64,000 nt of DNA from Planctomycetota bacterium. GTDB lineage: Bacteria; Planctomycetota; UBA1135; GCA-002686595. The notes below the pieces were generated by a model. It was given only the letters and a program-made list of their open reading frames with translations. It searched no databases and had not been told where the DNA came from. The stretch lies in contig JAPLOF010000013.1 in the NCBI GenBank assembly GCA_026692665.1, positions 62,001 through 126,000 on the forward strand. Reading direction: 5' to 3'. Shown here one piece after another: positions 873 to 8,915 of the stretch. Numbering within the stretch: position 1 is the first letter of the stretch; each line of letters starts with the position of its first letter. The position numbers were made by a program, and so were the translations under genes.

Positions 873-2303
873 ATGAAAACCACATCGTTCCTCTCGCTTC
901 CGACCATCGCCTGGATCGGTCTCGCCTTGAGTTCGGGGGTCTCTGCGCAAACCGCCTACGTGGAGTTGGAGCCCAACAGCACGAAGGCGGAAGCCACGGT
1001 CGTGCACTGCATCCACTCGGCGGACTGGCTCTCCGGCACGACCATGGGAGCCTCGACGACACCGGGGTCGCCGCTCGCGGACACGGCCGACACGTTCCGC
1101 ATCAATACCTGCGCGCTCCCGCTCGGGATCTACCGCCACCGGCTGTTCATCAACTCGATGACGCCCGGCCACACGGGGACCCTGTGCGGTCGCAATCAGG
1201 TCGACGGCGTCATCGGTTCCTTGGAGGTCCCGATCCAATCGAGCTTCGCGAGGACGACCCCGGCGCGCTTCAACGAGTGGTACGGATTCGGCCGCGCCGA
1301 GGAGGTCTACTACCGCATCGAGGGTACGCCCGCGACGACGGCGCCCTACTCCGTCGTCCTCTCCTCGAACATCGTGACGCCCGTGGACTTCCCGCAGGTC
1401 CTCACCGAGGGGATGCTCACGATCTCGACCACGGGTGAGGGTCATGCGACCAACACGGACCTGTGGGTGTACGACTCCGCCCTCCTGCCGCTCTTCACGT
1501 TCGGCAACGACGACGCCAGCGGCCCGCCTTCCGCCCAGTCGAGCCTGACCCGCATGTTCTCCGCGGGCACCTACTACCTCGCGATCACGGACTACAACCT
1601 CGCGAGCAATCAGGCCAGCCCCGTCGACGACGCGAACCGGAACGGCAACGTGTTCGACTTCCCGGACGTGCTCGCCAGCGGTTCTTCCCTGCCGGGTGCC
1701 GATCTCACCTTCTCGATCACGGATTTCGCGCGTTCGAACCAGATGCACCTCGCGAAGACCGGCCCCTACGACGTCCTGTGGGTCCGCTTCGTCGTGATGC
1801 CGCACGGCTACTCGATGCACGCCTTCTGCTCCGGTGACGGACATCCGGGCAGCGAGCCGTGCCCGTGCGGCAACAATGCGAGCAGCGGCGACCACGGCTG
1901 CGCCGGTCTGCCGAACGCCTCGGGCGCGCTGCTCGACGCGACGGGCATTCCGGGCGTGACCCTCGACTCGGTCCTGCTGCGGTGCCAGGACATGCCGCCG
2001 AACTCGGTGTGCCTGTTCTTCCAGGGCACTTCCCTGGTCAACGGTGGTTTCGGCTCCGCCTTCAACGACGGTCTCCTGTGCGCCGGCGGAACGCAGGTGC
2101 GACTCGCGACGCGTCAGGTCGACTTCCTGGGCGATGCGACCTTCGGTTACGGGCAGATCGGCGATCCGCTCCTGCACGTCGCGGGCGGAGTGCCGGCGGG
2201 CGGCGGTGCCTTCGTGTACCAGGTCTGGTACCGCAACCTCGCGGGACCGTGTGGCAATCACTCGAACACGAGCAACGGCTTGGCGATCAACTGGGGCAAT
2301 TGA
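873..2303 (+). CDS. Secreted protein with beta-sandwich-like N-terminal region and C-terminal CPCGN module
   Basis: The 476-residue product starts with a typical Sec signal peptide (MKTTS, hydrophobic stretch, cleavage near SAQTA). The first part contains ELEPNST and DTADTFRI, which recall the opening of PPC (bacterial pre-peptidase C-terminal) domains, and a related stretch recurs near residues 190-230 (FSAGTYYLAITDYN). From about residue 310 the common module follows: CPCGN, GC, MPPNS, FFQGT, FNDGLLC, RLATR, YQVWYRN. This copy diverges from the other three: ALY is replaced by VCL and GDGLRC by NDGLLC. Neighbouring genes do not suggest a pathway. It is probably exported to the cell surface or periplasm; no enzymatic motif is visible. 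Confidence 0.85.
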   Translation: MKTTSFLSLPTIAWIGLALSSGVSAQTAYVELEPNSTKAEATVVHCIHSADWLSGTTMGASTTPGSPLADTADTFRINTCALPLGIYRHRLFINSMTPGHTGTLCGRNQVDGVIGSLEVPIQSSFARTTPARFNEWYGFGRAEEVYYRIEGTPATTAPYSVVLSSNIVTPVDFPQVLTEGMLTISTTGEGHATNTDLWVYDSALLPLFTFGNDDASGPPSAQSSLTRMFSAGTYYLAITDYNLASNQASPVDDANRNGNVFDFPDVLASGSSLPGADLTFSITDFARSNQMHLAKTGPYDVLWVRFVVMPHGYSMHAFCSGDGHPGSEPCPCGNNASSGDHGCAGLPNASGALLDATGIPGVTLDSVLLRCQDMPPNSVCLFFQGTSLVNGGFGSAFNDGLLCAGGTQVRLATRQVDFLGDATFGYGQIGDPLLHVAGGVPAGGGAFVYQVWYRNLAGPCGNHSNTSNGLAINWGN

Positions 2304-2518: not shown

Positions 2519-3694
2519 TCAGCCCGATCCGCCCTCGACCTCCTTCATGAGCTTCTCGATCTCCGCGTCGAGGACGTTCTCGTCCACGCCGACCGACTTC
2601 CAGCGGATCACGCCCTTGGCGTCGATCAGGTAGGCAGTCGGCCACCCGCGGATGTTCCAGTCCGTCGAGATGGGACCGCTGGTGCTGCCGCCGTTCCAGA
2701 AGGACCGCCAAGTGATGCCCTTCTCCTCGATGACCTTCTTCACCTTGTCCCGGTCGGAGTCACTGTTGACGCCGATCAGCGCGAAGGGCTTCCCACTCAT
2801 CTTCTCCACGAGCGACCGCTCGTGCGGGTACATGGCCCGGCAGGGGCCTCACCAATCGCCCCAGAAATCGACCATGACCACCTTGCCGCGGTAGTCGGAC
2901 AGCTTGAAGGGCGTGCCCCCGATGTCCTCGCCGACGATGTCGGGAGCGACCTTTCCCACGGCGAACACTTGGATCTCGCGCAGGTCGCCCTTGGCGTAGT
3001 CGCCCAGGGTTTTCTTGCCACGGGGGACGTCGGCGTAGTCCTTCAGGACGGATTCGAGCAGCGCGACGACCTTGGCCTCGTCGTATTCCTTCTCGTCCTT
3101 CAGGGCCGAGGCCTGCTCGTAGGTTGCCGCGCCCTGCACGGCGCGGTGCGGGCTCTCGGCGGCGACGCGCCCGAGCAACTCCACGGCCTTCTCGCCGCGC
3201 GCGAGCGCAGGGACGACGCTGGCAAGCCGCTCGTCCTTCAGGAAGTTCGCCACGAGAAGTTCCGCGGCGCGATCGGTGCCCGTGCGGTCGTTGCGCACCA
3301 GCCATTCCAGGGCGGTGAAGCTCGCGTCGTCCTTGGATTCGGCGTCGACGATCGGCCACAGGAGCTTCGCGGTCGGATCCGGACTGGGGCGCGGCTTCTC
3401 GGCCGCGTAGGCCGCGCGCTCCTCGCTGGTCTTGAGCGCTCGATACGGTTCCATCCACGCGTTCTGCTCGTCGGCGAAGGCCTTGAGGATGCGCTTCACG
3501 TCCGTCGTGCGGGCGCTGTCCCCCGCCTTCGCCAGGGGCGCCTCCGCTGCACGCGCACCGGCAACCGGGACCATCGGGATGGCCGCGGTCGTCGTCTGCG
3601 CCGGCGAAGGCGGCGGGGGCGGACTCTCGTCCTTCTTGCCGCTCGACTGGCAGGCGACAAGCCCCAGTGCGAGCAGCCATGCACTCTTCCTCAT
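2519..3694 (-). CDS. TlpA/thioredoxin-like lipoprotein, predicted selenoprotein (UGA = Sec282 in a UGPC motif)
   Basis: This gene reads through a TGA at 2849-2851. Upstream of the TGA is a 281-residue part with a lipobox (LVAC, Cys15), a Pro/Ala linker, a helical region and the start of a thioredoxin fold (DYRGKVVMVDFWGDW). Downstream the same frame continues with GPCRAMYPHE and a complete thioredoxin C-terminal half, including WPTAYLID with the cis-proline. The family motif is WCGPC, so TGA stands exactly at the first, nucleophilic cysteine; the resolving Cys285 is kept. A SECIS-like hairpin follows (2807-2824). I start at the second ATG (3694) because GGAGGT at 3701-3706 lies 6 bases before it and directly abuts the first. 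The product is probably a periplasm-facing thiol-disulphide reductase. The alternative is a nonsense mutation in a pseudogene, but both halves are intact and in frame. The total is 391 residues including Sec. Confidence 0.88.
2807..2824 (-). promoter_or_regulatory. Putative bacterial SECIS element (apical hairpin)
   Basis: On the mRNA, CACGAGC-GGUC-GCUCGUG forms a perfect 7-bp stem with a 4-base loop. The loop starts 32 bases after the UGA (31 bases between). From memory, bacterial SECIS models need a small apical loop with a G in its first two bases, roughly 16-37 bases after the UGA; all of this is met. As I recall, the E. coli fdhF SECIS loop also reads GGUC. The bulged U of fdhF is absent here. 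A second small hairpin (GGCCC-CUGCC-GGGCC) directly follows the UGA. Confidence 0.75.
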
Positions 3695-3911
3695 GCTCAT
3701 ACCTCCAGGCCGATCGTAGGGGGGCTACCCCCCGGTGCGCCAGGACCCGAGATGCCGCGCCATCCGTGCACAGGATCCGGGCTCGCTCCACGCCCGATTC
3801 TCCGTCGACAGTCTGCGAGGGCCAGGCCGGAAACTCCCCCAAGGCGCTCACGTGTTGCCGCGCCACGGTGGCCGACCCCGTCGCGCAACGGTGGGTCCAG
3901 GCATCCGCCGT

Positions 3912-4233: not shown

Positions 4234-5838
4234 TCAGGGCGGACAAGGCCCGTCGAACTCTGTCCACACGACGCAGTGCGCGCCCTTCACGATCCAGACC
4301 GGTTCGCCAGCCAGGACGCAGCGAACGTAGCGGTCGATCGCCGACGGCGGCGGCTCGCGGACGGCCACCTGCGGATCGCGCGTCGCGAAGACGTAGTCGT
4401 CGTAGGCTTTCTGGTGTCCCGGCGTGCGACGCGGGTCCAGCACGGGCATGTGGGCGATCTCGCGATCGCACTTGCCGTGCACGTCGATCGCGCCGCGGTG
4501 AGACGCATAGACGAGGGCACCCGCGGCGCCGAGCGTGATCTTCGTCCCGGGAGGCGTCGCGCGCTCGAGCGCTCGGCCCAGGCGGAACCAGCGCTGCTCG
4601 TTCCGCACGTATTCGCCTCCGTACAGGCGCTCGAGGTACGAGCGTCGAGGCTCGAGGAGCGTGGGAATCACGGGCGAACAGAGCGCGCCCAGACAGGTCA
4701 CCGCGGCGACGAGCGGGCGCCCCGTGCTCAGGGCCCCGGGCCGGAGCAGGACCCAGATCGCGGCCGCCATGCCCGCTGCGGAAAGACCGATGGAGGCGAA
4801 GCGGTCGGCGCCGAGGTGCACGGGCCACGTGTCGCCTCCATTGTGGATGGAGTAAGCGACGCCGAGCGGCAGCAGGAGAAGGAGGGATCCGACCGCGACC
4901 GATGCAATTCCGAGGGAACGCCGGACGAGCAGGACGGCGCCGCATCCTCCGGCGAGAACGGCGACCGGGATCGCCACCCATCCCATCCGCACGCCGGCCA
5001 GCACACGTTCGACGAGAGAGGAGCCACCTAGCTTCAGGTAGTACGTGTTCGGCATCCACTCGCCGAAGATCGCGATCCGCGCGCCGAACAGGATGGCGAG
5101 CGCGGCCGCCAGGACGCCGACCGCGGCGAGGACCGCGCGCCAGGCCTGTCGCGCGTCGAGCTGGGTGCGATCGAACGCGAGCACCGCGAATCCCGGAAGG
5201 ACGTAGAGCACGGCATCCATGCGGATCCAGGATGCGACGGCCGCGACCGCTCCGAGTGCGAGACCCCGACGCAAGGGTGCCATGCTGCCAACCGCCGCAC
5301 GAACCGCGGCGAGAGCGGCGACCAGGACGAGGCTCACCTCGAATCCCTCCGCGATCCACCACGTGATCGCCACGGGCGCGGCCGCGAGCGACGCCGCGAG
5401 GACGCACGCGGACCTCGACGGAGAGCTCGACGTCGCGTCGCCCCGCCCGGCTCGGGACGCCAGCCTCGCTCGGATCGAGGCGCCAAGTCCGAATGCGATG
5501 GCGAGCGAGGCCAAGCCGAGGGCCGTGGTGTACAGCCCGAGGTCGTCCTCGCGGAAGAACGGCAGCGCGTGTGCCGCGCCGAGCAGCAGGACGTGGACGG
5601 GACTCGAAAATCCCTCGACCGGTTCCGCGCCGGGGAACCAGACCGGTCCAGCACCCTGCGCGAGGCTGCGCGCGAAGCAGGCCGTGATGTAGATGTCGTC
5701 CGCGACGCCGTGCACGCGGCGACCCTCGATGTCGAACTCGAGTGGGCTGCGCAGAGCGAGCACGAGAACGGCCTGGACCAGGAAAGCCCAGGTCCAGGGG
5801 CTCGTGGCGATCGATCTGGCTCGCTGCGCGGAGTTCAC
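4234..5838 (-). CDS. Polytopic GT-C-fold glycosyltransferase (AftB/GT39-like)
   Basis: The protein has many hydrophobic membrane segments. Near its N-terminus, in the first periplasmic loop, a DD pair (GVADDIYITACFARS) fits the acidic motif of GT-C polyprenyl-phosphate-sugar transferases. It is followed by PGAEPVEGFSSPVHVLLL and later MPNTYYLKLGG, which match the NPGERVEGYSNP and PNTYYLK blocks I know from AftB-like arabinofuranosyltransferases and related bacterial GT-C proteins. It probably transfers a lipid-linked sugar to a cell-surface acceptor. The frame is open up to an ATG at 5976, but the first 46 residues there are basic and unlike a protein start, so I chose GTG 5838 (VNSAQRARS; 534 residues). 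It is monocistronic; donor and acceptor are unknown. Confidence 0.72.
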   Translation of the reverse strand: MNSAQRARSIATSPWTWAFLVQAVLVLALRSPLEFDIEGRRVHGVADDIYITACFARSLAQGAGPVWFPGAEPVEGFSSPVHVLLLGAAHALPFFREDDLGLYTTALGLASLAIAFGLGASIRARLASRAGRGDATSSSPSRSACVLAASLAAAPVAITWWIAEGFEVSLVLVAALAAVRAAVGSMAPLRRGLALGAVAAVASWIRMDAVLYVLPGFAVLAFDRTQLDARQAWRAVLAAVGVLAAALAILFGARIAIFGEWMPNTYYLKLGGSSLVERVLAGVRMGWVAIPVAVLAGGCGAVLLVRRSLGIASVAVGSLLLLLPLGVAYSIHNGGDTWPVHLGADRFASIGLSAAGMAAAIWVLLRPGALSTGRPLVAAVTCLGALCSPVIPTLLEPRRSYLERLYGGEYVRNEQRWFRLGRALERATPPGTKITLGAAGALVYASHRGAIDVHGKCDREIAHMPVLDPRRTPGHQKAYDDYVFATRDPQVAVREPPPSAIDRYVRCVLAGEPVWIVKGAHCVVWTEFDGPCPP

Positions 5839-6100
5839 GCCGGGCGACCGGGGTGGCTCTGGTCTGCGTTGCTGGAGGACGCGCAATGGAGTGCCGCGCG
5901 CACTGAGGTCGCGGACGATACCAGCGCAGGATCGGCGCCAACTCTCCGCGCGCCGTCTCGACGGCCTCTTCTCCAATGCACGAACGACTTCACGGGCACC
6001 TCTGGGCGCAGGACAGGTTACGCCAGGCTCTCGGCTCCCGCGATCAACGAGATTCCTCGACGAGGATGGACGCGCGAGCGCCCGGCCGCCTGGGCGAAGT

Positions 6101-7843
6101 TCAGAAGCGGAAACGCCACTGGAAGGACAACTTCCAGGCGTCGTCCTGATCGACGAACGCCGCCCCGGGGTCGAACCAGCCCAGGACGAATTCGAAGTCC
6201 GACCCGCTCCAGTCGCGAACGCCCAGGATCAGGTCGAGTTCCTGGCCCAATTGGGTGTGCACGCCATCGGGACTCGCCTTGAGGTCCGATCGGCGCAGGA
6301 AGGCCGCCGCCGTGTCCTGGTCGAACCCGTGCCACACCAGATCGAGCGACGAATCGCGCGTGAAGCGCGTGCCCACGCCGAACGTGAGCACCGACAGGTT
6401 CGAAAGTTCCGGGTCCACGACCTCGCCGTAGTAGCGGAACGAGCTGACTCCGCCGAGCTTCCCGTTGTTGCGCTCGAGCCCGGTCTGCCGGAACGACTCG
6501 TCCGTCGCCGTGGAATCACCGTCGTCACCAGAGCCGAACGCCCAACCGGCGCTCATGTAGAAAGGCTTGAGGAAAGTCCATGTCGTGCCGACGTCGAGGC
6601 CGAACCCGCGCAGGTTCGTGTCGTTCTCGTACCCGCGCACGATGCTGCCCTCGAGCCAGGACTTGGTCGCGGGCAGCCATTCGCCCAACATGCGCGCGCC
6701 GAAGTAGATCGGATACGAGTCGAAGTCCCCTCCCGCGCGACGGTCGACGACCCAGCCGGCGAGGTGGCGCTTCGGATCGTCGTTGGACACGTAGAGAATC
6801 CCGTTCTCGGCCTCGCCGTCGTACGGATTGTCCGTCTCCCCGAGCATCGCGCTGAGCGAGGCGTCGACGCGCACGCCGCCGCCGCGCCAGACCGCGCGCA
6901 CCGCGTCGAGGTCCTTCTTGTAGATCCACTCGCGCGGATCGTCGAAGTCCTGGCGGCCGACGTGGAGGTCGACCCCTGTGCCAGCGATGTCGCGCACGAA
7001 GGCCCACAGCTCCTTCACGCGAACGTCCGAATTCCAGCCGTCGGCGCCGTTCTGCGCGTCGCGGTAGTCCCACTCGAACCGCGGGGCGAAGAGCGCGCTG
7101 AATCGCTCGCTGGGAGTCCACAGGAACTGCGGCCTGACCGTGATCCGCGTCTTCTGCACGTCGCGATCGCGTGCATCGCGCAAGTCGTAGTTGTCCTCGC
7201 GCACGTACTTGGTCTCGATCAGGGCGCCAAAGGTCAGGCCATCCGCGAGGCGGATGGAACCAGGCACGTAGTCGTCCTCGTCCAGCTTGCCCTGAGCGAC
7301 CTGAAAGCGGATCTCCTCCGCGAGCGGGATGACCCCGAGCGGTTCCTTGTTCTCGAGCTTGGTGGTCTTGGACAGCCGCACGCGGAATCCGATGACGTCC
7401 GCCTCGAAGCCACCGGCACCCGTGGCCAGCCGGTCGATGCGACCCGCGATCCGATCGCGCCCGGCCTCGCGCGGCGCCATCTCGCGCGTCAGGAACACGC
7501 CTTCGCCGCGGTAGCTGCCCTCCACCTTCACCCGGCGACCGACGGCGAGGGTCTCGAAGGTCAGCCCCTCGTCCCAGCGCACGGTCGTCCCGAGCCTCAC
7601 TTCGAGGCCCAGGACGCGGAAGGTCTGCGCGCCCGCGTTCACCTCGGTCACGGCACCGAGAACGACGTGCTTGTCGCCCGGCGGGAGCACCTGCACGGAG
7701 CTCGCCTCGAAGGCGCCGTCGGCGGCGATCGCGCCCTTGAGCTCGACCCACTGGCCCACGCGCAGCTCTTCCAGGCTCTGGCCCCGCGCCGAGGCGGCCA
7801 GGAGAAGCAGGAGCGCCGCCAGGGCGCGGAACACGTCACGCAC
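6101..7843 (-). CDS. Outer-membrane beta-barrel, alginate-export-like, with N-terminal DUF5666-like domains
   Basis: This is the last gene of the glycan operon. A signal peptide (hydrophobic core, ARGQS) is followed by about 170 residues of small repeated beta units (WVELKGAIAADGAFEAS, VGRRVKVEGSY, IAGRID) that look like DUF5666/OB-type modules. The remaining ~390 residues are rich in alternating aromatic/polar strands (FRYYGEVVDPELSNL, SSLDLVWHGFDQD, FVLGWFDPG) and end in KLSFQWRFRF, the C-terminal phenylalanine signature of outer-membrane barrels. The barrel resembles the Alginate_exp family. The GTG start at 7843 overlaps the stop of the kinase gene by 8 bases. It probably exports the polysaccharide made by the upstream genes. 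The product has 580 residues. Confidence 0.75.
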   Translation of the reverse strand: MRDVFRALAALLLLLAASARGQSLEELRVGQWVELKGAIAADGAFEASSVQVLPPGDKHVVLGAVTEVNAGAQTFRVLGLEVRLGTTVRWDEGLTFETLAVGRRVKVEGSYRGEGVFLTREMAPREAGRDRIAGRIDRLATGAGGFEADVIGFRVRLSKTTKLENKEPLGVIPLAEEIRFQVAQGKLDEDDYVPGSIRLADGLTFGALIETKYVREDNYDLRDARDRDVQKTRITVRPQFLWTPSERFSALFAPRFEWDYRDAQNGADGWNSDVRVKELWAFVRDIAGTGVDLHVGRQDFDDPREWIYKKDLDAVRAVWRGGGVRVDASLSAMLGETDNPYDGEAENGILYVSNDDPKRHLAGWVVDRRAGGDFDSYPIYFGARMLGEWLPATKSWLEGSIVRGYENDTNLRGFGLDVGTTWTFLKPFYMSAGWAFGSGDDGDSTATDESFRQTGLERNNGKLGGVSSFRYYGEVVDPELSNLSVLTFGVGTRFTRDSSLDLVWHGFDQDTAAAFLRRSDLKASPDGVHTQLGQELDLILGVRDWSGSDFEFVLGWFDPGAAFVDQDDAWKLSFQWRFRF

Positions 7844-8915
7844 GGCGCATCTCCGCGGCGGACTCGCGTGCGACATCGACCAGCGGCTCGATCGCGAGCC
7901 GCGCGCGCGGGCGCAGGCCGTGCACGAGGGCGAGGCGCAGGGCGCTGGCGGTCGAGTAGAAGCGCTCGCTGCGCTCCTCCAGGACACCGAACCCCTCGCG
8001 CAATGCCCTGACCGCGGAGAGCGCGCTGCGGTCGTCCGCGCCGCGCAGGCCGAGCCATCCGGCGAGCCTCGTGTGAACCGCCAGGTTCGCGAAGTCGAGC
8101 TCCGGCTCCGCCCGGCAGGCGAGATCCAGGTCCAGGAGCGCGACAGTCCGACCTTCGACGAGGAGCTGCCCGTCGTGGAGGTCGCGGTGCGCGACGACGT
8201 GCGAAGCGGCGGGCTCCAGAGCGACCTCGTCGAGGAGAGCACGGGCCTCGTGCCAGCCGGGGGGCAGACTCCCCGCGGCCAGCACGAAGCGCCGCGCGTG
8301 CCGATCGAGCTGCGCCAACTCCTCGGCGCGCCCGTGGACCTCGAGCCGTGTGTCCGGAGCGCTGCCCTGCATCCGCCGCAGTGCCTGCCCGACGCGTTGG
8401 AAGACACCCAGATCGTCGAAGCGCAGCTCGTGGCCGCGCAGGAGTTCGAAGGCGACGCACTCCTCGGACTCATCGGCGTGCAGCACGCGTGGCAGGCGGA
8501 ATCCCGATTGGACGCCGCCTTTCGGAGTCGCGGACAGGGCCGCGTGCAAGGCGGCATGCAGTCGTGCGGACTTCACGGCGCGGCCACGGCGATAGGCCTT
8601 CACGACGTGCGCGCCGTAGCGGGCATTCAGGCGCGCGACCATCCGGCGTCCAGGGCGCCAGGAGAGGAGATCGGCCTCGCCCCGGTCGCACAGCGCCGAC
8701 AGTTCGCGTGCGGCCGGAACGCGCTTCTCGTCGCCCGGTCTCAGCTCGCGCAGCTGCTCGCCCTCGCACTCGAACCAGCGGAACCCCGCCGGCGTCTCGA
8801 GGGTCAGGACCAGGCCACCATCGTCGCGCACCTCGGTACGGAGAATTCGCGCAGCGGCATCGCCACCCACTTCGCGCTCGAGCACGGCGAGTGCCAAGTC
8901 GAACGGCGCGGTCAC
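7836..8915 (-). CDS. APH-fold small-molecule kinase (second of two)
   Basis: The C-terminal half holds the aminoglycoside-phosphotransferase/choline-kinase catalytic pattern: AHRDLHDGQLL (Brenner-type HxD loop, with Gln where Asn is usual), then LLDLDLACRAEPELDFANL for the metal-binding Asp. The open frame extends to 9026, but the added residues are arginine/proline-rich; the GTG at 8915 overlaps the preceding stop by 4 bases (GTGA) and gives VTAPFDLALAVLE, so I chose it (359 residues). The substrate is unknown. In a glycosyltransferase/ABC operon it may phosphorylate a sugar, polyol or a glycan substituent. The operon carries two diverged kinases side by side. Confidence 0.75.
   Translation of the reverse strand: MTAPFDLALAVLEREVGGDAAARILRTEVRDDGGLVLTLETPAGFRWFECEGEQLRELRPGDEKRVPAARELSALCDRGEADLLSWRPGRRMVARLNARYGAHVVKAYRRGRAVKSARLHAALHAALSATPKGGVQSGFRLPRVLHADESEECVAFELLRGHELRFDDLGVFQRVGQALRRMQGSAPDTRLEVHGRAEELAQLDRHARRFVLAAGSLPPGWHEARALLDEVALEPAASHVVAHRDLHDGQLLVEGRTVALLDLDLACRAEPELDFANLAVHTRLAGWLGLRGADDRSALSAVRALREGFGVLEERSERFYSTASALRLALVHGLRPRARLAIEPLVDVARESAAEMRRA

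What the first reader, a model, noticed from the sequence alone, without database searches (positions are those of the whole stretch)
2519..3694. TlpA-like lipoprotein with UGA in place of the active-site cysteine: likely selenoprotein
The frame upstream and downstream of TGA 2849-2851 is continuous and together forms a complete thioredoxin-fold lipoprotein of 391 residues. The TGA falls exactly on the first cysteine of the expected WCGPC motif (GDW-U-GPCRAMYP), the position where selenocysteine raises thiol-disulphide activity. An automatic annotation would split it into a truncated lipoprotein and a 104-residue fragment. Sec-containing thioredoxin-like proteins are known in some bacteria; a TlpA-like lipoprotein with a long N-terminal helical domain in a planctomycete-like genome is at least rare.
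Basis: partly seen in the sequence, partly recalled or inferred. Interest (0 to 1): 0.95.

Follow-up and report, generated by a model that had tools for sequence, protein, structure and literature searches.

The report
Selenocysteine TlpA-like lipoprotein with frozen SECIS
An in-frame UGA sits exactly where a thioredoxin-like bacterial protein should have its first catalytic cysteine, is followed by an RNA hairpin kept almost letter for letter in its closer relatives across the phylum, and lies in a genome with the whole selenocysteine machinery, so the gene very likely encodes a selenium-containing redox enzyme, predicted to be an exported lipoprotein, that ordinary gene finding cuts in two.

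Summary
Confirmed. On the minus strand, 3694-2519 is one 391-codon frame with TGA at 2849-2851 (residue 282), at the first cysteine of W-C-x-x-C. The window's genome holds tRNA-Sec (anticodon UCA), selA, selB and selD; selD has its own in-frame TGA. In the best match of each of the 30 best genomes (window's gene included), 30 of 30 have TGA at this site; of 103 listed phylum matches at E<=1e-35, 99 carry an in-frame TGA. A hairpin CACGAGC-GGUC-GCUCGUG starts 24 nt after the UGA and meets the published bacterial SECIS model. Its codons GAG CGG TCG CTC are identical in 30 of 30 genes, while other conserved residues with synonymous codons (one Tyr excepted) use two to six. A model of UGA plus hairpin finds 56 of 294 genomes (three by weak matches only). 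More distant Sec relatives lack this hairpin. The gene very likely encodes a Sec-containing TlpA/ResA-like lipoprotein; Sec incorporation and function are predicted, not measured. The kind (Trx-fold UxxC selenoprotein) is known; no NCBIfam selenoprotein model reaches its cut-off. New points: wide spread in the phylum, a frozen SECIS coinciding with the peptide HERSL, and one relative with two such units fused into a predicted double-Sec protein.

The parts
2519..3694 (-). Sec-containing TlpA-like lipoprotein gene, 391 codons plus TGA stop
   Evidence: continuous frame with TGA=U; Pfam AhpC-TSA/Redoxin/Thioredoxin_8
2849..2851 (-). in-frame TGA, predicted selenocysteine codon (residue 282)
   Evidence: first position of UxxC; 30 of 30 fetched loci have TGA here
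2807..2824 (-). predicted bacterial SECIS hairpin CACGAGC-GGUC-GCUCGUG; stem 2818-2824/2807-2813, apical loop 2814-2817
   Evidence: fold; codons GAG CGG TCG CTC unchanged in 30 of 30 genes; model R1; its 12-nt core occurs once in the window
3702..3706 (-). Shine-Dalgarno-like GGAGG, 7 nt before ATG 3694
   Evidence: sequence
3650..3694 (-). predicted lipoprotein signal with lipobox LVAC (Cys15)
   Evidence: sequence; lipobox rule recalled, no signal predictor run
2966..3514 (-). N-terminal all-helical domain, residues 61-243
   Evidence: AlphaFold model, pLDDT block means 96-98 over this part; no Pfam match here
2522..2959 (-). thioredoxin-fold TlpA/ResA-like domain, residues 246-391, UGPC active site
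   Evidence: Pfam, PDB sequence search, Foldseek

Best explanation
The gene at 3694-2519 (minus strand) very likely encodes a selenoprotein: a predicted lipid-anchored, exported TlpA/ResA-like thiol-disulfide oxidoreductase whose first catalytic cysteine is replaced by an in-frame UGA that SelB, guided by the hairpin just downstream, would decode as selenocysteine. Shown by sequence: the frame, the UGA at the UxxC position, the hairpin-forming sequence, its codon-level conservation, and the presence of tRNA-Sec, selA, selB and selD. Inferred: that SelB with Sec-tRNA binds this hairpin and inserts Sec at UGA in competition with release factor, so that a 281-residue truncated form may also appear; that the protein is exported and lipidated; that the Sec/Cys pair cycles between selenol-thiol and selenenylsulfide; and that a DsbD-like membrane reductase, encoded in the same genome, keeps it reduced so that it reduces disulfides or peroxides outside the cytoplasm. 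Substrates are unknown.
For: Frame and TGA. tRNA-Sec 73.9 bits, anticodon tca; selB 335.4 bits with its neighbours in the frame, selA 470.9, selD 318.3 bits, all over cut-off, selD with its own TGA. 30 of 30 fetched loci (best match of each of the 30 best genomes; 93 of 294 genomes match at E<=1e-20) have TGA at W-U-x-x-C; 99 of 103 listed matches at E<=1e-35 carry an in-frame TGA (my count). Hairpin: stem 7 bp, loop GGUC, 31 nt between UGA and loop, -11.9 kcal/mol, which meets the published bSECIS constraints (PMC13188914 section 5). GAG CGG TCG CTC identical in 30 of 30 genes; other conserved residues with synonymous codons use 2-6 codons, except one Tyr (TAC in 29 of 29) and the hairpin's own His. 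Model R1 finds UGA plus hairpin in 56 of 294 genomes, E down to 2.9e-25, three genomes by weak matches only. 57 of 61 TGA genomes have a strong selB; the two genomes with only a Cys form at E<=1e-35 (G283, G069) have none. Fold: mean pLDDT 88.8; the best Foldseek matches are ResA-type thiol-disulfide oxidoreductases, with CcmG among the 50 shown. DsbD_TM 86.6 bits in the genome. FdhA-like frame with U-H-A-P and four further TlpA/AhpC-type frames with W-U-G-x-C in the genome.
Against: No protein or selenium measurement exists. The single-sequence folding signal is modest: z -1.73 against shuffles; 61 of 2000 synonymous redraws fold as well over 57 nt and 111 of 2000 over the 24-nt hairpin; 9 of 373 in-frame 24-mers of the gene fold at least as well. 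The stem hardly varies, so covariation cannot be tested. 15 of 54 Sec rows in the tree set, three paralogues in this genome among them, lack this hairpin, and I did not look for another SECIS in them. 4 of 61 TGA genomes lack a strong selB; they are 77-89% complete. The window's genome is itself 89.96% complete. Lipidation, DsbD partnership and substrate were not tested.
Confidence: 0.92

Rival explanations
1. The UGA is a sequencing error or a nonsense mutation, and the gene is broken.
For: A single codon separates it from a normal CxxC protein, and Cys homologues exist.
Against: The same TGA stands in 30 of 30 fetched loci from 30 genomes; the part after it is conserved and models with high confidence; the hairpin codons are frozen.
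Confidence: 0.01
2. UGA is reassigned to another amino acid (such as Trp) throughout this genome.
For: Frames stay open through UGA.
Against: The gene ends at a TGA, and the hairpin core is absent from the 100 nt that end there onward; the unannotated 476-codon ORF at 873-2303 also ends in TGA; the internal TGA falls at a Cys position of homologues; the genome has tRNA-Sec with anticodon UCA plus selA, selB and selD. Stop usage over the whole genome was not counted.
Confidence: 0.01
3. UGA acts mainly as a regulated stop: the main product is the 281-residue helical lipoprotein, and the Sec form is made only when selenium is available.
For: The N-terminal helical domain is complete before the UGA. 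UGA recoding can be incomplete, 30-40% in vivo in one study (PMC4513850, start of the abstract in the listing only).
Against: Nothing here shows a function of the short form; it would end inside the thioredoxin fold, at the active site. Both products can coexist with the main explanation.
Confidence: 0.1
4. The conserved HERSL peptide is a protein-level constraint and the hairpin is a by-product.
For: Some Cys homologues also carry ERSL: 14 of 92 Cys rows. The Cys relative L089 keeps CAC GAG CGG, though not TCG CTC.
Against: Codon choice is frozen (GAG CGG TCG CTC in 30 of 30) although the same amino acids elsewhere in these genes use 2-6 codons; Cys relatives L075, L076 and L091 have other letters here.
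Confidence: 0.03

Closest known systems
Thiol-disulfide isomerase-like selenoprotein (cd02966, UxxC), in Table 1 of PMC13188914
   Same: TlpA-like domain class, UxxC motif, predicted computationally
   Different: Listed there with one Sec and one representative; I could not compare sequences, and the stem 'planctomycet' does not occur in that review
Redoxin family selenoprotein (PF08534, UxxC), in Table 1 of PMC13188914
   Same: Redoxin Pfam class and UxxC
   Different: Only the table entry was seen; sequence relation not tested
ResA-like WAxxUGC motif-containing protein, NCBIfam NF041054
   Same: ResA-like Sec protein by its name
   Different: 33.2 bits against a cut-off of 300; motif UGC, not UxxC
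ResA/TlpA/CcmG thiol-disulfide oxidoreductases (PDB 1st9, 1jfu, 2b1k)
   Same: C-terminal fold and active-site region
   Different: Cys in place of Sec; sequence matches cover only the C-terminal part of the query
UGC-containing TlpA disulfide reductase family selenoprotein (cd02966), in Table 1 of PMC13188914
   Same: TlpA class selenoprotein
   Different: motif UGC, not UxxC

Membership tests
Bacterial (SelB-dependent) selenoprotein | in-frame UGA at a redox-active position that is Cys in homologues | tested here: met
Bacterial (SelB-dependent) selenoprotein | selA, selB, tRNA-Sec and selD in the genome | tested here: met
Bacterial (SelB-dependent) selenoprotein | bSECIS: loop 3-9 nt, stem 4-16 bp, G in the first two loop positions, 16-37 nt spacing, MFE <= -7.5 | tested here: met
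   loop 4 nt GGUC, stem 7 bp, spacing 31 nt, -11.9 kcal/mol
Bacterial (SelB-dependent) selenoprotein | selenium present in the protein | not testable with these tools
   needs 75Se labelling or mass spectrometry
TlpA/ResA-like thiol-disulfide oxidoreductase | thioredoxin fold of the AhpC-TSA/Redoxin class with a WxxC-type active site | tested here: met
   PF00578 66.5 bits, PF08534 63.4 bits, both over cut-off; Foldseek to ResA entries, TMt 0.84-0.88
TlpA/ResA-like thiol-disulfide oxidoreductase | NCBIfam TlpA or ResA model over its cut-off | tested here: not met
   ResA 69.6 bits of 170; TlpA 68.2 of 230; so 'TlpA/ResA-like', not TlpA or ResA
NCBIfam NF041054 (ResA-like WAxxUGC selenoprotein) | score over the cut-off | tested here: not met
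   33.2 of 300 bits
Lipoprotein | N-terminal signal with lipobox cysteine | tested here: inconclusive
   MRKSAWLLALGLVAC read by eye; no predictor run

The most novel reading that the evidence does not exclude
In this phylum one SECIS sequence has been locked at the nucleotide level and has written itself into the enzyme: the hairpin dictates the peptide HERSL next to the active site, comes as a fixed UGA-hairpin unit with paralogues and domain duplications, and so allows chains of fused Sec-thioredoxin units (two in G128; perhaps more in the organisms behind nine protein-database pieces that begin just after one such site and end just before the next). These would be modular multi-selenocysteine redox chains in bacteria.
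Probability: 0.4. Interest if true: 0.75.

Novelty: new member of a known kind. Interest (0 to 1): 0.58.

Why it matters
Ordinary gene finding cuts these genes at the catalytic residue (the window's own protein is held as a 281-aa stub, P0002), so a redox family present with an in-frame TGA in 61 of 294 sampled genomes of the phylum is easily missed. [quoted passage not shown] Here is one that is essentially invariant in the closer members over a phylum, which gives a clean substrate for testing what SelB reads and how an RNA signal constrains protein sequence. A fused double-Sec protein asks how a ribosome passes two UGA codons in one message.

Tried and rejected
Error or pseudogene and a genetic-code change were rejected (see rivals). 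Covariation support was dropped because the stem hardly varies. Sec-to-Cys reversion leaving a HERSL scar was considered: a tree of 146 thioredoxin domains without the hairpin columns needs 15 Sec/Cys changes, 5 forced by starred branches, but an AU test does not reject one clade of the 39 hairpin-bearing Sec rows against 92 Cys rows (p 0.241), and HERSL also occurs in a Cys row outside the main mixed clade (P0055), so direction and number of changes stay open. A search for more fused multi-Sec genes in the order of G128 found only G128 itself among 12 genomes. Rfam on the window at gathering threshold gave no match. Searches of the held library listed no paper whose title or abstract start describes this family. 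I opened seven of those papers in part only. The library lacks most subscription journals, and the supplementary table of PMC4807772, which lists planctomycete selenoprotein candidates, could not be read, so earlier notice is possible.

Limits of the counts: one search scored at most 6 candidates per genome and lists only the best matches; the 30 loci are the best match of each of the 30 best genomes; 99 of 103 and 61 genomes are my hand counts from that list; that the TGA lies at the active site was checked only in fetched loci; 'strong selB' (E<=1e-70) was set; the 57 of 61 rests on handles typed from the two tables. For the tree I left out 20 loci by hand (L064, L067-L073, L080-L088, L117, L119, L120): some repeat sites already held, others (such as L068, L070 and L083-L087) are further Sec sites. 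Rows without my active-site pattern or with under 90 residues were also dropped, so the Cys forms of G283 and G069 are not in the tree. Near-identical L041 was left out of alignment A1 (29 sequences). Four weak R1 matches (G242, G191, G109:C9, G132:C289; E 1.7e-5 to 8.9e-5) lie where one search lists nothing; I did not compare all R1 matches.

Full report
THE OBSERVATION. The minus-strand frame 3694-2519 is continuous except for TGA 2849-2851 and gives 391 residues with residue 282 in D-F-W-G-D-W-U-G-P-C. ATG 3694 has GGAGG 7 nt upstream, so it is preferred over ATG 3700. The database protein P0002 (281 aa, ending ...DFWGDW, contig of 141803 bases, the length of contig C13) is the truncated reading. 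P0003, P0004, P0005 and P0009 end at the same residue, at 79, 75, 59 and 49% identity to the query.

THE MACHINERY. The window is C13:62001-126000 of a 4.58-Mb, 64-contig genome, 89.96% complete. It has tRNA-Sec (73.9 bits, over the cut-off; ARAGORN: tRNA-SeC, anticodon tca), selB, selA and selD, all over their cut-offs; selD lies about 3.4 kb from selA and has its own in-frame TGA.

RELATIVES. The protein (Sec given as Cys) was searched in 294 genomes of the phylum: 93 match at E<=1e-20. Of the 103 listed matches at E<=1e-35, 99 have an in-frame TGA; a few of the 99 also have a second TGA, a TAG or a TAA. In the 30 fetched loci the TGA is at W-U-x-x-C in 30. Two named records, an uncultured Pirellulaceae and a 'Planctomycetota bacterium', have TGA and hairpin as well. 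61 genomes have a TGA member at E<=1e-35; 57 have a strong selB, and the four without are 77-89% complete. The two genomes with only a Cys form at that level, G283 (WCGPC) and G069 (WCAPC), have no strong selB. Only 6 candidates per genome were scored, and the query is itself a Sec member, so Cys forms may be under-counted: in the protein database, 80 of the 120 listed homologues carry a CxxC site by my pattern.

THE SECIS. The 57 nt from the UGA fold at -22.6 kcal/mol with a hairpin CACGAGC-GGUC-GCUCGUG. Loop length, stem length, G at the loop start, 31-nt spacing and energy meet the published bSECIS model (PMC13188914, section 5 read). Energy alone is weak evidence (z -1.73; 61 of 2000 synonymous redraws as low over 57 nt, 111 of 2000 over the hairpin). 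Codon conservation is the strong evidence: in 30 genes GAG, CGG, TCG and CTC are each used 30 of 30 times and CAC 29 of 29, while other conserved residues with synonymous codons use two to six codons, except Tyr289 between the UGA and the hairpin (TAC in 29 of 29, whose numbering from ATG 3700 is two higher). With codon shares taken from other conserved positions, the joint chance per gene is about 0.006; ten independent genes would give about 1e-22. Fifteen columns in a row are invariant in the alignment of 29 sequences. A covariance model of UGA plus hairpin finds 56 of 294 genomes, three (G242, G191, G132) by weak matches only, and two places in the window's genome, this gene and a paralogue on C23. 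Cys relatives L075, L076 and L091 do not show these letters; L089 keeps CAC GAG CGG but not the other arm. Some divergent Sec members keep the hairpin (L101; L079 with U-x-x-U); 15 of 54 Sec rows, mostly of an FWGFW-U type, do not.

WHAT THE PROTEIN IS. It has a lipoprotein-type N-terminus (read by eye), a low-confidence stretch to about residue 51, an all-helical domain (61-243) and a thioredoxin fold (246-391), modelled at mean pLDDT 88.8 and pTM 0.81. Sequence and fold searches point to ResA, TlpA and CcmG/DsbE, but no TlpA or ResA curated cut-off is reached. The Foldseek rows shown align 136-169 columns of the 391, so none of them can span both domains; the helical domain was not searched on its own. 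The genome has a DsbD_TM protein, a plausible electron donor (inference).

A SELENOPROTEOME AROUND IT. PF00578 gives 20 matches in this genome, 5 with TGA, all five read at W-U-G-x-C; only this gene and the C23 one have the hairpin. An FdhA-like frame has a TGA in U-H-A-P, the motif listed for Sec-FdhA in the review (UHxP), with the score below its cut-off. In relatives, neighbouring Sec genes occur (G196, G038, G078), and in G128 two units are in one frame with two UGA-hairpin sites 346 codons apart; its 5' end runs off the contig. Nine of 187 listed database proteins begin just after one site and end just before the next; that their ends are UGA is not shown.

WHAT IS KNOWN. A 2026 review (PMC13188914; outline, passages, sections 5 and 10, and parts 1 and 2 of 3 of section 7 read) counts 119 families/subfamilies, the vast majority with one Sec and a small subset with 2-3; it lists cd02966 UxxC and Redoxin UxxC classes and does not contain the stem 'planctomycet'. 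PMC4807772 (passages and section 17) reports selenoproteins in two planctomycetes, naming FdhA and FmdB in that section; its table S9 was not seen. So, as far as these sources show, this is a new family-level member of the known class of Trx-fold selenoproteins, with an unusually constant SECIS.

Noticed in passing
L033 (G128:C42) 1-2121: Two fused helical-plus-thioredoxin units in one frame, Sec254 and Sec600, each followed by the same hairpin; the 5' end runs off the contig.
   Followed up: partly
L079 (G064:C54): Relative with U-L-T-U: both active-site cysteine positions are TGA, with the hairpin core kept.
   Followed up: no
G000:C39:47602, C15:234095, C58:45984, C23:72612: Four more TlpA/AhpC-type frames with TGA at W-U-G-x-C in the window's genome; the C23 one has the same hairpin.
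   Followed up: partly
G000:C17:5695-6141 (L123): Formate-dehydrogenase-like frame with TGA in U-H-A-P, below the TIGR01553 cut-off.
   Followed up: partly
P0010, P0012, P0014-P0016, P0020, P0022, P0023, P0032, P0033, P0048, P0055, P0068, P0082: Cys homologues that carry ERSL at the hairpin's place; possibly former Sec proteins, direction unresolved.
   Followed up: partly
window 6101-8557 (-): ORF with DUF5666 and Alginate_exp (outer-membrane barrel) matches; true start probably inside.
   Followed up: no
window 873-2303 (+) and 4234-5976 (-): Neighbouring ORFs with no Pfam match at E<=0.01; no operon partner of the selenoprotein gene was recognised.
   Followed up: no
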